A model generated the notes under the pieces. That model was not told the DNA's origin and did no database searches. It saw only the letters and a program-made list of their open reading frames with translations. A program made the position numbers and the translations under genes. This document shows, piece by piece, positions 9,858-20,893 of a DNA stretch of 64,000 nt. Location: the NCBI RefSeq assembly GCF_000020145.1, contig NC_010644.1, positions 558,001 to 622,000 of the forward strand, written 5' to 3'. This DNA comes from Elusimicrobium minutum Pei191 (GTDB lineage: Bacteria > Elusimicrobiota > Elusimicrobia > Elusimicrobiales > Elusimicrobiaceae). Numbering within the stretch: the first letter of the stretch is position 1; every line of letters begins with the position of its first letter.

Positions 9858-9884
9858 TTTTATAATAGAAAAGGAGAGTTTTTT

Positions 9885-11261
9885 ATGGGTGGAATTATAG
9901 GTTTGCAGGGAACGCAGGACGCGGCGCAAATGATACACGTTGGGCTTTTGACTCTTCAGCACAGAGGGCAGGAAAGCAGCGGCATAGCCGTTGAAAAAGA
10001 AGACGGGGATTTTTTTAATTATCATATGTCAGACGGGCTTGTAATGGGGAAATACACTCCCGCTATTTTAGAAACCCTAAAAGGCACTAGCGCGATAGGC
10101 CATGTCAGATATCCTACAACAGGTATAAAAAGCGGACTTACTGACGCACAACCGTTTTTATTTAAATGTGCCCACGGCAGCATAGCCATAGCTTTAAGCG
10201 GCAATATAGTTAATACTGAGGCTTTGCGCGCCAAATTAGCTAAAGAAGGCTCCATTTTCCAACATTCCTCCGAAACTGAACTTATAGTACACCTTATAGC
10301 GCGCGAAAAGTTACCCATTGAAAACGCCTTAAAAAAGGCTCTTAACAAAATAGAAGGCGGTTACGGCGGTATAATGCTTTTTAAAGGCAAATTAATAGCG
10401 TTCCGCGATCCGTACGGAATAAGGCCTTTGGTGCTTGGCAAAATAGGCAAAAATTTTATGGTAGCTTCCGAAACTTCCGCCATTGAAGTGCTTGGCGGTA
10501 AGTATATAAGAGATGTGGAACCAGCCGAAATCCTGGTTATAGAAAAAGGCAAACTTTCAAGCGGCTTTTTTACGCAGCCTAAAAAAGAAAATAATTGTAT
10601 TTTTGAGCAGGTCTATTTTTCCAGGCCGGACAGCATTGTAAGGGGATTTTCCGTGGCTGAGGCTAGAATGTCCATGGGACGCAAACTTGCGCAGCAAATG
10701 AAGGATATAAAGGCTGATATTGTTATGCCGGTGCCGGATTCGGGCTTTTTCGCGGCTTTGGGTTTTGCCAAAGAATCGGGCATTCCTTTTGAAATGGGTT
10801 TGGTAAGGAACCATTATATGGGGCGTTCCTTTATCAAATCAACACAGCATATGCGCGAAGTAGTGGCAAAGCTTAAATTATTTCCCATAGGCGGTATAGT
10901 AAAAGGTAAAAACATTATTTTAATAGACGATTCGATAGTGCGCGGCACAACGGCTAAAAAGATGATCAATATGCTTAAAGAGCACGGCGTTAAAAATATT
11001 CATTTTGCAGTAACGTCGCCTCCTATCATAGCGCCTTGCTTTTACGGTATAAATACACCAAGCAAAAGTGAGCTGATATATTGTAATATGTCTCATGAGC
11101 AGATTGTAAAAGAAATAGGCGTTACAAGCTTGCATTTAATAACAATTAAAAACGCGGCGGACGCCTGCGGCGGCATAAGCGGTTGCCAAGGCTTTTGCAG
11201 CGCTTGTTTTACGGACAAATATCCTACAAAAATATCAAAGTCAACAAGGGAGGCAAGATGA
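9885..11261 (+). CDS. purF: amidophosphoribosyltransferase with a degenerate glutaminase site
   Basis: First committed purine step: PRPP to phosphoribosylamine. 458 aa. The PRTase half is convincing (PVPDSGFFAALGFA, LVRNHYMGRSFI, IILIDDSIVRGTT), and C-terminal cysteines in GCQGFCSACFTDKYP match Fe-S-type PurF. The N-terminal nucleophile domain keeps LQHRGQESSG and GHVRYPTTG. However, the chain starts M-G-G-I-I-G where the family has the catalytic Cys (CGI), the oxyanion NG of HNGN is LSGN (S105), and the SDSE-type Asp is Glu (E130). This predicts an ammonia-dependent enzyme. A strong AAGGAGAG fixes the start and no upstream Cys start exists. Confidence 0.9.
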   Translation: MGGIIGLQGTQDAAQMIHVGLLTLQHRGQESSGIAVEKEDGDFFNYHMSDGLVMGKYTPAILETLKGTSAIGHVRYPTTGIKSGLTDAQPFLFKCAHGSIAIALSGNIVNTEALRAKLAKEGSIFQHSSETELIVHLIAREKLPIENALKKALNKIEGGYGGIMLFKGKLIAFRDPYGIRPLVLGKIGKNFMVASETSAIEVLGGKYIRDVEPAEILVIEKGKLSSGFFTQPKKENNCIFEQVYFSRPDSIVRGFSVAEARMSMGRKLAQQMKDIKADIVMPVPDSGFFAALGFAKESGIPFEMGLVRNHYMGRSFIKSTQHMREVVAKLKLFPIGGIVKGKNIILIDDSIVRGTTAKKMINMLKEHGVKNIHFAVTSPPIIAPCFYGINTPSKSELIYCNMSHEQIVKEIGVTSLHLITIKNAADACGGISGCQGFCSACFTDKYPTKISKSTREAR

Positions 11262-17167: not shown

Positions 17168-17202
17168 TTGACAAAACTTAAAAAGTTAGGTTTACTGAAC
17201 TT
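17168..17202 (+). promoter_or_regulatory. promoter and candidate DtxR-type operator of the regulator gene
   Basis: TTGACA at 17168-17173, 17 bp, then TTTACT at 17191-17196. An imperfect dyad AAGTTAGGTTTACTGAACTT (17183-17202) lies over the -10 and start site. Its left half, AAGTTAGGTTTA, is identical over 12 bases to the operator-like site at 19865-19854 on the minus strand, and TTAGGTT resembles the DtxR/IdeR half-site. Suggests autoregulation. Confidence 0.5.
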
Positions 17203-17625
17203 ATGAACAAAGAAAATCTTATTAATAAAGAACATCTTACAATGAGTATGGAAGATTATTTGGAAGCCATTTCGATAGCTTCCAAACAGCACGGCGTAGC
17301 CAGGGTAAAGGACATAAGGGATTTAATGAATGTTAAAACCCCCAGTGTTACAGGCGCGCTTACGGTGCTTGCTAAAATGGGTTATGTATTGCATGAAAAA
17401 TACGGTTATGTGGAGCTTACTCCAAAAGGTGTAAAAGCGGCCGATGAAGTTAAACAGCGCCATGTTCTTTTAACGCAGTTTTTAACGGATATTTTGGGCG
17501 TTTCGCAAAGCGCCGCGGATATTGACGCTTGCAAAATGGAGCACGTTATCAGCAAAGAAACTTTTGACAAACTTACCAATTTTGTAAAAAAACAAAAAGC
17601 CGCGGTTAAGAAAAAAGCTAAATGA
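17203..17625 (+). CDS. DtxR/MntR-family metal-dependent transcriptional regulator
   Basis: 140 aa. Winged-helix domain starting LTMSMEDYLEAI, then ARVKDIRDLMNVKTPSVTGAL as the recognition helix, followed by the dimerisation domain RHVLLTQFLTDILGV and CKMEHVIS. The D and E of MEDYLE, the His of RH and the E and H of MEH match MntR/DtxR metal ligands. No SH3-like third domain, so it is MntR-sized. Expected to repress when iron or manganese is plentiful. The predicted transcription start coincides with the ATG and there is no Shine-Dalgarno, so it may be leaderless; starts at 17242 or 17248 would cut the conserved N-terminus. Confidence 0.88.
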   Translation: MNKENLINKEHLTMSMEDYLEAISIASKQHGVARVKDIRDLMNVKTPSVTGALTVLAKMGYVLHEKYGYVELTPKGVKAADEVKQRHVLLTQFLTDILGVSQSAADIDACKMEHVISKETFDKLTNFVKKQKAAVKKKAK

Positions 17626-17650: not shown

Positions 17651-18163
17651 ATATTTAGGAAAAAAGGGTTTACGTTAATTGAATTATTGGTAGTTGTTTT
17701 GATTATAGGCATACTTGCCGCTATCGCTTTGCCGCAATATACAAACGCGGTAAATAAAAGCCGCGCCGTTCAATTATATTTAGTTGCAAAAGATATGCGC
17801 CAAGCGCAAGACCGTTACTTTTTGCAGCACGGGATTTATTCCGACAGTTTTGATAACTTTGATATTGATATCCCCGGCTCAAATATTGCTTGTACGGACG
17901 GCGCCTCCGAATGCAGAAAAGACGGACGCTACCTTTATAGGATTTGGGGGCCTTCAAGCTTGGTGCAAGCTACTCTTTTGTCAAACTCTAACAACGATGG
18001 AAGCGGAGCAAACAGAATTATTACATTAGAATTTTATCCCGCGGGTTATACTCATGAAAAGAATTGTGTAACTGATGGACCCGACAAAACCCAAGCAAGA
18101 AAGCTGTGTCTTTCTTTAGGGGGTAAAGAGCGCAGTGACGCTCCGGGTTATTTTAAACTTTAA
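17651..18163 (+). CDS. type IV pilin, no canonical start codon
   Basis: The frame reads AUA-UUU-AGG-AAA-AAA then [20 protein letters not shown], a perfect prepilin cleavage site and helix with Glu5. No ATG, GTG or TTG lies in frame between the upstream stop (17648-17650) and the cleavage site. An internal TTG at 17687 would remove the leader peptide. The position where related genes have ATG is ATA (17651). The rest is intact: about 165 residues with [15 protein letters not shown], a C-terminal [11 protein letters not shown] segment and a normal stop before a strong terminator. Either it is silent through start loss or it uses a very weak AUA start. Confidence 0.75.
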
Positions 18164-18254: not shown

Positions 18255-19607
18255 TTAAACTAAACCTTGCTCAATCATAGCGGTGGCGACTTTCTTAAAG
18301 CCAGCTATATTAGCGCCCGCTACATAATTGCCTTTCATGCCGTATTCAGCGGCGGCGGCTAAAGCAGTGTCATGAATATTTTTCATGATTTTTTGAAGTT
18401 CGGCGTCCACCTGCTCTCTAGGCCAATAAAGCCTTACGCTGTTTTGGGACATTTCCAAACCTGATACGGAAACTCCGCCCGCGTTAGCGGCTTTGCCGGG
18501 GGCGTATAAAATGCCCGCTTTTTCAAAAGCGGATACAGCTTCCGGCGTGCAAGGCATGTTGGCTCCTTCCGAAACGCATTCGCAGCCGTTTTTAAGTAAT
18601 GTCTTCGCGTCTGTAACGTCAAGTTCGTTTTCGGCTGCTGTTGGGAAAGCTGCAAAACAAGGTATATCCCATGTTTTTTTACCTGAGGGTAAAACAACCG
18701 CTTTTGAATATTTTTTAGCGTATTCCGTAATAGCTCCTCTTTTTACGAATACTAAATCTTTTAAGTAATTTAACTTCTCATCATCAACACCATCTTTGTC
18801 GTGGATAGCTGCTTCGGCCGTGGCGAAAGCCACTACTTTGCCGCCTAAATGGTTGATTTTTTCAATAGCGTAAATACCTACGTTGCCCGCCCCGGATATT
18901 ACGCAGGTTTTTGATTTTAAAGAATCACCTTTTGTGGCAAGCATGTTTTGGGCAAAGTATACAGTTCCGTAGCCCGTAGCTTCCGGGCGCACTAAACTTC
19001 CGCCCCAGGTAATGGATTTACCTGTAAAAGTACCCGTAAACTCATTTGTTAATCTTTTATATTGCCCGTAAAGATAACCTATTTCCCTTGCGCCTACGCC
19101 AAGGTCACCCGCAGGAACGTCCGTATTAGGGCCGATGTGCCTAAAAAGTTCCGTCATGAAGGACTGGCAAAAACGCATAACCTCAGCGTCGCTTTTGCCT
19201 TTAACGTCAAAGTCCGAGCCGCCCTTTCCACCACCCATGGGAAGGGTTGTTAAGGCGTTTTTAAAGGTTTGTTCAAAACCTAAAAACTTAAGCATGCCTA
19301 CTGAAACGTTGGGTCTGAACCTTAAACCGCCTTTATAAGGGCCTATGGCGCTGTTAAACTGTACCCTTATGCCTCTGTTAACGTGCACTTCACCTTTGTC
19401 GTCTTGCCAGGGCACGCGGAAAGTTATAAGCCTTTCCGGCTCTATCATTCTTTCTAAAATTTTTTGTTTAATGTATTCTGGATTTCTTTCCAAAACCGGG
19501 GTGAGAGAGTGTGCTACTTCCGCCACGGCTTGATGGAATGTAAGCTGGTCAGGATCTTTTGCTACAACATTGGCCACGATCTGGTCAATGTGATTTTTGA
19601 TGTTCAT
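18255..19607 (-). CDS. gdhA: glutamate dehydrogenase, NADP-type family
   Basis: Assimilates ammonium onto 2-oxoglutarate. 450 aa, the size of the hexameric NADP enzyme of bacteria. Motifs are GPYKGGLRF, LTTLPMGGGKGGSDFD (catalytic Lys region), PAGDLGVGAREIGYLYGQYKR, TGYGTVYF and SGAGNVGIYA (Rossmann loop). GGAGG precedes the ATG, and a canonical promoter lies 40 bp further upstream. Two minus-strand terminators separate it from upstream transcription. Fits ammonia as the main nitrogen source, in line with the altered PurF. Confidence 0.96.
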   Translation of the reverse strand: MNIKNHIDQIVANVVAKDPDQLTFHQAVAEVAHSLTPVLERNPEYIKQKILERMIEPERLITFRVPWQDDKGEVHVNRGIRVQFNSAIGPYKGGLRFRPNVSVGMLKFLGFEQTFKNALTTLPMGGGKGGSDFDVKGKSDAEVMRFCQSFMTELFRHIGPNTDVPAGDLGVGAREIGYLYGQYKRLTNEFTGTFTGKSITWGGSLVRPEATGYGTVYFAQNMLATKGDSLKSKTCVISGAGNVGIYAIEKINHLGGKVVAFATAEAAIHDKDGVDDEKLNYLKDLVFVKRGAITEYAKKYSKAVVLPSGKKTWDIPCFAAFPTAAENELDVTDAKTLLKNGCECVSEGANMPCTPEAVSAFEKAGILYAPGKAANAGGVSVSGLEMSQNSVRLYWPREQVDAELQKIMKNIHDTALAAAAEYGMKGNYVAGANIAGFKKVATAMIEQGLV

Positions 19608-19645: not shown

Positions 19646-19674
19646 AGTCTATCAAAGCAATGTGCAAGTGTCAA
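19646..19674 (-). promoter_or_regulatory. gdhA promoter
   Basis: On the minus strand, TTGACA (19674-19669), exactly 17 bp, then TAGACT (19651-19646). Near-consensus sigma-70 promoter placed about 40 bp before the gdhA ATG and just past a terminator hairpin. Confidence 0.85.
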
Positions 19675-19678
19675 TTTT

Positions 19679-19710
19679 AAAAAAGGCCTAACGGTATTAT
19701 ACCGGGGGCC
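19679..19710 (-). terminator. imperfect terminator hairpin insulating gdhA
   Basis: On the minus strand, GGCC, an inner CGGTA/TACCG pair around TAA, GGCC, then six T. It lies directly upstream of the gdhA -35 box and would stop read-through from the small-RNA unit or ftcD. Confidence 0.55.
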
Positions 19711-19741: not shown

Positions 19742-19866
19742 AAAAAAAGGACCCCTCATTTCTGTGCGGAGAAATGAGGGGGGAGAGTTTGGGCGTTTTT
19801 GCCCGAGTTTGTGTAGATAAAATTTGTAGTAAGGTTTGGTTAATAAAATTAGTTAAACCTAACTTT
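19742..19866 (-). ncRNA. candidate small RNA, about 125 nt, C-rich loop
   Basis: A complete transcription unit without a plausible ORF in the ftcD-gdhA gap. It begins at a sigma-70 promoter (-35 19901-19896, -10 19878-19873) and ends at a 12-bp hairpin CCCCTCATTTCT/AGAAATGAGGGG followed by seven T. A GGTTT...AAACC hairpin forms near the 5' end, a GGGC/GCCC hairpin in the middle, and a single-stranded stretch AACTCTCCCCCC precedes the terminator. That stretch is complementary to Shine-Dalgarno sequences, as in some iron-sparing regulatory RNAs. Alternatively this hairpin merely terminates ftcD. Expression is inferred, not shown. Confidence 0.55.
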
Positions 19867-19901
19867 ATTAATATGATATAACTTTTTTTATGTTTTGTAA
19901 A
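19847..19901 (-). promoter_or_regulatory. small-RNA promoter with overlapping DtxR-type operator
   Basis: TTTACA (19901-19896), 17 bp, TATCAT (19878-19873). The operator-like AAGTTAGGTTTAACTAATT occupies 19865-19847, positions about +1 to +19. It contains a TTAG/CTAA dyad and shares 12 consecutive bases with the site upstream of the DtxR/MntR-type gene at 17183. The position predicts steric repression. Confidence 0.55.
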
Positions 19902-19933: not shown

Positions 19934-20893
19934 TTATATTATTTTTTTGGAATAGTCAAAGTCCGCGTGCAAATCCAAGCCTAAAAATTTAACGGCGTTT
20001 TGCAGCTTTTCAGATTCTGAAAACTTTTCGCATCCGCAAGCCGTTTGTGAGTAAAAATCGCCGGCTTGCATAAGCGCTTCTTTAGGTATAAGGCCTATAA
20101 GTTCGCTTCCTTTGACTTCAATATTCATAAGGCCCGCTTCATGCTTAACTGTTTCAAACACGGTGTGGACGGACGTTTTGTGAAAATTTGTTATGTTGCA
20201 AGATACCTGCGCCGCCTCATACGCGGGAAGATACCAGCCTATGGCTTTTACTCCCGGCAGTTTGCGGCCGCCGCCCGATTGCCTTATTTTTCTAGCCAAA
20301 ATTTCGGCCAATTTGGCGGATTTTGTGTTAAGCGTTATATTATAAGCTATTAAAAATTCCCTCGCACCTATTGTTATTGCGCCGCCTTTTTTTACTTTGG
20401 GAGTGATTTCATGAGGGCCGAAATCAGGGGGAAGGTTTTTAAGTTTTTCTTCCAAAGTTTCATAGCCGCCTTTTCTTATTACGGCTAAGTTGCGGCGGGA
20501 TTCGTCGGCCGCGCTGTTTTCATATAAATAAACGGGCAGGCCTAAGTTGCACGCTACTTTTTTAGCAGTTGATTTTGAAATGTCCACACAGTCTTGCATT
20601 GTGGCGCCCGAAAGCGGAATAAAAGGGCAGACGTCCACAACGCCTTGGCGCGGATGTCTGCCCTTATGTTTTGACATATCAATAAGTTCGTAAGCTTTTT
20701 CTATGCAGGCGTAAGCAGCCGCGCCTATATTTTCTTTAAGCCCCGCGAATGTAATTACGGTACGGTTTGCGTCCTCGCCCGGTTCAACGCTCAGTATTTT
20801 AACATTATGTTTTTTAACGGCTTCTGTTATTTGATAGATAACAGCCTCATTTTTGCCTTCTGATATGTTGGGCACGCATTCTATCATAGCCAT
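19934..20893 (-). CDS. ftcD: glutamate formimidoyltransferase
   Basis: Transfers the formimino group of formiminoglutamate to tetrahydrofolate; some homologues also handle 5-formyl-THF. 319 aa, the transferase domain only, without the cyclodeaminase domain of the mammalian fusion. Motifs are CVPNISEGK at the N-terminus, GRHPRQGVVDVCPFIP with the catalytic His, LYENSA and GAREFLIAYN. No histidine-degradation genes accompany it, so a role in folate one-carbon supply for purine synthesis is possible. Starts seven bases after the pepT stop, so it is co-transcribed with pepT. Confidence 0.88.
   Translation of the reverse strand: MAMIECVPNISEGKNEAVIYQITEAVKKHNVKILSVEPGEDANRTVITFAGLKENIGAAAYACIEKAYELIDMSKHKGRHPRQGVVDVCPFIPLSGATMQDCVDISKSTAKKVACNLGLPVYLYENSAADESRRNLAVIRKGGYETLEEKLKNLPPDFGPHEITPKVKKGGAITIGAREFLIAYNITLNTKSAKLAEILARKIRQSGGGRKLPGVKAIGWYLPAYEAAQVSCNITNFHKTSVHTVFETVKHEAGLMNIEVKGSELIGLIPKEALMQAGDFYSQTACGCEKFSESEKLQNAVKFLGLDLHADFDYSKKII

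What the first reader, a model, noticed from the sequence alone, without database searches (positions are those of the whole stretch)
19742..19901. Candidate metal-regulated small RNA with a C-rich seed
Seen: a complete minus-strand unit (-35 TTTACA, 17 bp, -10 TATCAT, strong hairpin plus T7) in the ftcD-gdhA gap with no ORF. A DtxR-like half-site lies at +1, and an unpaired CTCCCCCC stretch complementary to Shine-Dalgarno sequences precedes the terminator. Known: Fur/DtxR-repressed RNAs with C-rich regions (e.g. FsrA of Bacillus) silence iron-protein mRNAs. Inferred: this RNA may spare iron, for instance from hydABC or purF.
Basis: partly seen in the sequence, partly recalled or inferred. Interest (0 to 1): 0.75.

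Follow-up and report, generated by a model that had tools for sequence, protein, structure and literature searches.

The report
Iron-regulated small RNA gene, Elusimicrobium

Summary
The sequence observation holds: a promoter-like pair, a strong terminator and no ORF lie in the 326-nt ftcD-gdhA gap. Two details change. The "DtxR half-site" is a full 18-bp operator (AAAGTTAGGTTTAACTAA), and only AAACUCUCC is unpaired, because four of the six C sit in the terminator stem. The operator claim was tested independently. A consensus made only from dtxR and feoAB promoters of three congeners (AAGTTAGGYWYRVY) matches this genome exactly at four places: dtxR, twice at the ferredoxin-feoAB locus, and at +1 of this unit. 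Similar sites precede dtxR in two further genera. Control by the DtxR/MntR-like repressor encoded 2.2 kb away is therefore likely, and iron is the likelier metal. Target evidence is suggestive: ribosome-binding sites with GGAGAG, the seed complement, belong to purF, two rubrerythrins, desulfoferrodoxin, ferritin, NifU, PFOR and others (6/20 versus 5/204 for other GGAG sites in a spaced sample). That test was post hoc, and a relative without the RNA shows some of the same. No Hfq was found. The unit is absent from the two held congeners. Function resembles FsrA, IsrR and MrsI, without homology. A second, unrelated C-rich-loop RNA near feo, conserved across the family, was also found.

The parts
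19896..19901 (-). -35 element TTTACA
19873..19878 (-). -10 element TATCAT, 17-bp spacer
   Evidence: pairs of this quality are as frequent as expected by chance, so weak alone
19849..19866 (-). Predicted DtxR-family operator AAAGTTAGGTTTAACTAA covering the predicted +1
   Evidence: 13-mer AAAGTTAGGTTTA has only two exact copies in the genome, here and in the dtxR promoter; consensus from dtxR and feo sites matches here; same motif before dtxR in other genera
19745..19866 (-). Predicted small RNA, about 122 nt
   Evidence: promoter, operator and terminator layout; fold z = -7.7; no ORF
19782..19790 (-). Unpaired putative seed AAACUCUCC
   Evidence: unpaired probability 0.96-1.0; complement GGAGAGTTT at the RBS of purF and of a [2Fe-2S] protein
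19752..19781 (-). Intrinsic terminator hairpin (12 bp, 6-nt loop) followed by U7; may also end ftcD transcripts
17203..17622 (+). DtxR/MntR-family metal-dependent repressor gene, presumed regulator (likely start at 17203 or 17242)
   Evidence: Pfam Fe_dep_repress and Fe_dep_repr_C; nearest solved relatives are MntR
17182..17199 (+). Operator in the dtxR promoter (AAAGTTAGGTTTACTGAA), implying autoregulation
9873..9881 (+). Candidate target site GGAGAGTTT, the Shine-Dalgarno sequence of purF (9885-11261)
   Evidence: the Cys residues aligned with those I recall as Fe-S ligands of Bacillus PurF are kept
19646..19674 (-). Separate promoter-like site of gdhA (TTGACA-17-TAGACT with TG before -10)
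19684..19709 (-). Second terminator-like hairpin between the unit and the gdhA promoter

Best explanation
19866-19745 (minus strand) encodes a free-standing trans-acting small RNA of about 122 nt. When metal (most likely Fe2+) is ample, the DtxR/MntR-like repressor encoded at 17203-17622 binds the operator over +1 and silences it, together with feoAB and its own gene. When iron is scarce the RNA is made, ends at the 19781-19752 terminator, and its unpaired AAACUCUCC pairs with GGAGAG-type Shine-Dalgarno sequences, lowering translation of a subset of iron proteins (purF, rubrerythrins, desulfoferrodoxin, ferritin, NifU, PFOR) without Hfq. Shown: gene layout, operator identity and its sharing with dtxR and feoAB, seed accessibility in the predicted fold, matches at target RBSs. 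Inferred: transcription, repression by this protein, iron as effector, pairing and its effect.
For: Only two exact AAAGTTAGGTTTA copies in 1.64 Mb: the dtxR promoter and here. AAGTTAGGYWYRVY, fixed by the dtxR and feo sites of G000, G001 and G002 without using this site, matches G000 exactly at four places: dtxR, here, and two at ferredoxin-feoAB; 0.10 expected per 64 kb in shuffles, 2 found in the window. dtxR promoters of other genera carry AAAGTTAGGCAAACTAA or close variants. In the neighbouring family dtxR homologues lie next to feoB. Fold z = -7.7; seed unpaired 0.96-1.0. Iron proteins: 6 of 20 GGAGAG-RBS genes against 5 of 204 other GGAG genes, Fisher p = 8e-5 (6e-4 without one ambiguous call); identities from Pfam. 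GGAGAG is not kept at G001 purF, ferritin, Fe-ADH or the NifU_N-like gene, and G001 lacks the RNA.
Against: No transcript data. The unit is absent from the two held congeners (gaps of 75 and 88 nt against 326) and has no homologue elsewhere, so there is no covariation or conservation. The target test was post hoc, with the GGAGAG genes already seen. Among 18 sampled genes with Fe-S-type Cys motifs only one has GGAGAG. In G001, without the RNA, 3 of 13 GGAGAG genes also look iron-related, including PFOR and a HydC-like gene. Pairing is only 6-9 bp. The repressor is closest to MntR by sequence, so manganese is possible.
Confidence: 0.62

Rival explanations
1. There is no separate RNA. The hairpin is the terminator of ftcD and the stretch is its 3' UTR.
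For: No other terminator stands between the ftcD stop (19934) and this hairpin; the promoter hexamers are at chance frequency.
Against: A full repressor operator sits exactly over the predicted +1, and its only other exact sites in the genome are at dtxR and feo. A UTR does not explain that. Both can be true, since the terminator can serve ftcD as well.
Confidence: 0.13
2. The unit is a metal-responsive leader or attenuator controlling the downstream gdhA.
For: Same strand, directly upstream of gdhA; folded RNA with a terminator.
Against: A second terminator-like hairpin and a separate gdhA promoter-like site lie between. Congeners have gdhA without this leader. No Rfam riboswitch reaches threshold.
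Confidence: 0.07
3. A real repressor-controlled small RNA, but the physiological metal is manganese or its targets are not iron proteins.
For: The repressor's nearest solved relatives are MntR proteins and it keeps the MED-Y-x-E motif. The target enrichment is post hoc and partly present in G001, which lacks the RNA.
Against: The operator serves feoAB, an Fe2+ transporter; the residue aligned with MntR Glu99 is Cys, as in iron-sensing DtxR (recalled); strong iron-protein bias of GGAGAG RBSs.
Confidence: 0.18

Closest known systems
MrsI of Mycobacterium
   Same: Predicted to be repressed by a DtxR-family regulator (IdeR); iron-sparing; host without Hfq (PMC9410917).
   Different: No sequence or synteny relation known; [quoted passage not shown]
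FsrA of Bacillus subtilis
   Same: Iron-repressed; binds Shine-Dalgarno sequences through a C-rich motif; silences iron enzymes (PMC9410917).
   Different: FsrA is under Fur and needs FbpA, FbpB and FbpC. Here the regulator is DtxR/MntR-like, and Fbp proteins were not looked for.
IsrR of Staphylococcus
   Same: Iron-repressed RNA with single-stranded C-rich regions aimed at RBSs of iron-enzyme mRNAs (PMC9410917).
   Different: Fur-controlled; three C-rich regions conserved across the genus. Here one short seed, found in one species only.
RyhB and PrrF
   Same: Same logic: a metal repressor silences an iron-sparing RNA.
   Different: Fur and Hfq dependent, different seeds; no Hfq found in this genome.

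Membership tests
Iron-sparing regulatory RNA (functional class) | Own promoter and intrinsic terminator, non-coding | tested here: met
   Sequence layout, fold and no ORF; transcription not shown
Iron-sparing regulatory RNA (functional class) | Promoter carries the operator of the cell's iron repressor | tested here: met
   Operator shared with dtxR and feoAB, exact genome-wide matches only there; that the metal is iron is inferred
Iron-sparing regulatory RNA (functional class) | RNA rises on iron starvation | not testable with these tools
   Needs northern blot or RNA-seq
Iron-sparing regulatory RNA (functional class) | Seed complementary to mRNAs of iron proteins beyond chance | tested here: inconclusive
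   6/20 versus 5/204, p = 8e-5, but post hoc, few Fe-S-motif genes carry it, and partly seen in G001, which lacks the RNA
FsrA, IsrR, MrsI or RyhB as homologous families | Sequence or structure homology (Rfam) | tested here: not met
   No Rfam hit at gathering score at this locus; best weak hits to unrelated families
Hfq-dependent small RNA | Hfq encoded in the genome | tested here: not met
   PF17209 absent; 5 of 14 control genomes ring, among them E. coli and B. subtilis
DtxR/MntR-family regulator (the presumed repressor) | N-terminal DNA-binding domain and C-terminal metal-binding/dimerisation domain | tested here: met
   PF01325 E = 4e-15 and PF02742 E = 2e-17; MntR chains E = 9e-16

The most novel reading that the evidence does not exclude
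A recently arisen, species-specific iron-sparing RNA in the little-studied phylum Elusimicrobiota, under a DtxR/MntR-like repressor and without Hfq, whose targets have acquired GGAGAG Shine-Dalgarno sequences to come under its control. It would be a case of a small-RNA regulon caught forming.
Probability: 0.25. Interest if true: 0.75.

Novelty: new member of a known kind. Interest (0 to 1): 0.55.

Why it matters
Searches of the held open-access papers found none describing a regulatory RNA in Elusimicrobiota (most subscription papers are not held). If correct, it extends RNA-based iron sparing to another phylum, pairs it with a DtxR/MntR-type repressor in a cell without Hfq (as suggested for MrsI), and gives a defined operator and regulon (dtxR, ferredoxin-feoAB, this RNA) for a common gut lineage. 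Its absence from close relatives makes it a tractable case of a new small RNA joining an existing regulon.

Tried and rejected
Riboswitch or known RNA: no Rfam hit at gathering score; weak PyrR and other hits at E above 1. Homologues: no match in phages. BLASTN in 60 relatives gave only short, mostly A+T-rich fragments. The 20-mer AAACTCTCCCCCCTCATTTC found one unrelated Campylobacteraceae MAG contig in genome contigs, about the chance rate. FtcD as bait found nothing in genome contigs. Exact TTAGGTTTAACTAA at genome position 626414 lies in a longer coding-like stretch, so it was not pursued. One-mismatch operator hits shown in context look intragenic. A shared CTTTACAAAACATA with a cupin-gene promoter has no operator and was set aside as probable chance. 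The idea that the feo-adjacent RNA is a paralogue was rejected: different layout and loops. GGGTAAA-type RBSs, complementary to that other RNA, show no clear iron-protein bias by eye.

Full report
WHERE IT IS. The window is positions 558001-622000 of a single 1,643,562-bp contig. By size and content this is Elusimicrobium minutum Pei191 (identification from my own knowledge of the genome size, not from a record title). The unit lies in the 326-nt gap between ftcD (19934-20893, minus) and gdhA (18255-19607, minus).

OBSERVATION. On the minus strand the sequence reads TTTACA, 17 bp, TATCAT, then ATTAATAAAGTTAGGTTTAACTAATTTTATTAACC, and ends in a 12-bp hairpin and T7. No reading frame of note is present. 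The hexamer pair is no better than chance (24 found against 21.6 expected in 10 kb), but the terminator is the strongest of the region. The RNA from 19866 to 19745 folds at -33.7 kcal/mol, z = -7.7.

OPERATOR. The window also holds a DtxR/MntR-family gene at 17203-17622. Its own promoter reads TTGACAAAACTTAAAAAGTTAGGTTTACTGAACTT. The 13-mer AAAGTTAGGTTTA occurs exactly twice in the genome: there, and at +1 of this unit. The feoAB promoter carries AAAGTTAGGCATAACTTA. The two congeners carry AAGTTAGGTTTACTTAA before dtxR, and AAGTTAGGCTTGGCTTA or AAGTTAGGTTCAACTTA before feoAB. The consensus of those six sites, AAGTTAGGYWYRVY, did not use the finding. It matches G000 exactly at four places: dtxR, this unit, and two at ferredoxin-feoAB; each congener has only its dtxR and feo sites. 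Shuffles of the window give 0.10 matches on average against 2 observed. In further genera dtxR promoters carry AAAGTTAGGCAAACTAA, AAAGTTAGTTTTACTTA and similar. In the neighbouring family dtxR homologues sit beside feoB. This is the firmest result here: the unit's start point bears the operator of the feo/dtxR regulon.

METAL. The repressor resembles MntR most (E = 9e-16) but has Cys where MntR has Glu99 (alignment). From my own knowledge, Cys at that place is typical of iron-sensing DtxR. With feoAB in the regulon, iron is the likelier signal, but manganese is not excluded.

TARGETS. The seed complement GGAGAGTTT occurs 21 times in the genome, four times at a ribosome-binding site: purF, a thioredoxin-like [2Fe-2S] protein, a secreted protein and a membrane protein. 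The Cys residues that align with the Bacillus PurF cluster ligands (positions recalled, not looked up) are conserved. Genes with GGAGAG before ATG further include two rubrerythrins, desulfoferrodoxin, ferritin, NifU, a NifU_N-like protein, iron alcohol dehydrogenase, PFOR and a serine-dehydratase-type protein (Pfam). As a control, 40 spaced 20-kb stretches plus the window gave 224 genes with a GGAG Shine-Dalgarno sequence. I read them in shuffled order without the site shown. Iron proteins were 6 of 20 for GGAGAG and 5 of 204 for the other GGAGNN classes, p = 8e-5; 6e-4 without one ambiguous call, and 1e-5 to 3e-3 when the whole sample is used with 15 to 60 further iron proteins assumed.

CAVEATS ON TARGETS. 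The idea came from the same data, I had already seen the GGAGAG genes, and classification was by eye. Only 1 of 18 sampled genes with Fe-S-type Cys motifs has GGAGAG. In congener G001, which lacks the unit, the orthologues of purF, ferritin, iron alcohol dehydrogenase and the NifU_N-like gene do not have GGAGAG, which fits co-evolution; but PFOR keeps it, and 3 of 13 GGAGAG genes there look iron-related, which does not. I treat the target evidence as suggestive.

CONSERVATION. Gene order around ftcD-gdhA is kept in G001 and G002, but the gap is 75 and 88 nt and holds no unit. Both are incomplete MAGs (66% and 88%), though the junction itself is intact in each. No homologue turned up elsewhere. 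So the RNA is either young or lost in relatives, and structure cannot be tested by covariation.

COMPARISON. It works like FsrA, IsrR and MrsI: a metal repressor silences an RNA that silences iron proteins. [quoted passage not shown] No Hfq was found here either. It is not a member of any of those families by sequence.

SIDE FINDING. Beside feoAB, on the plus strand at genome 1167310-1167408, lies another RNA with two hairpins, C-rich loops (UUUACCCCCC and CUUUCCCCC) and a terminator. A model built from three congeners finds it at E <= 1e-3 in over 50 genomes of the family, mostly near feoB where contigs allow. Thirty sequences share a nearly invariant first loop, and the terminator stem shows compensatory changes. 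No Rfam family matches. Its promoter lacks the operator. It deserves its own study.

Noticed in passing
Genome C1:1167310-1167408 (+), L196; also L194, L195, L197-L223: RNA family of about 95 nt without an Rfam match: two hairpins with C-rich loops plus terminator, often near feoB, in most Elusimicrobiaceae genomes searched. Loop UUUACCCCCC nearly invariant.
   Followed up: partly
Genome C1:1167446-1167459 (-), L154: A second exact operator lies between that RNA and the ferredoxin gene, upstream of the ferredoxin -10; its role is unclear.
   Followed up: no
L067-L088 (genera g2 and g6): dtxR promoters across genera share AAAGTTAG followed by a short spacer and (A)CTAA or ACTTA, and in genus g6 dtxR is often divergent from gdhA, so dtxR and gdhA are old neighbours.
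   Followed up: partly
window 17203-17622: The DtxR/MntR-like repressor mixes MntR-type N-terminal ligands (MED-Y-x-E) with a DtxR-type Cys in the C-terminal site (DACKMEHV); its metal preference is worth testing.
   Followed up: no
Genome C1:1088902-1088942 (-), L059: A cupin-like gene promoter shares CTTTACAAAACATA and nearby bases with this unit's promoter (83% over 41 nt), without the operator.
   Followed up: no
window 17687-18163 and many sampled loci: Many paralogous type IV pilin-like genes ([25 protein letters not shown]) across the genome.
   Followed up: no
Genome C1:599123-599364, 1032476-1032717, 1033984-1034225: Repeated element with paired AAGTTAGCTTTAAC and AAGTTAAGTTTAAC motifs 228 bp apart, at least three copies.
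   Followed up: no
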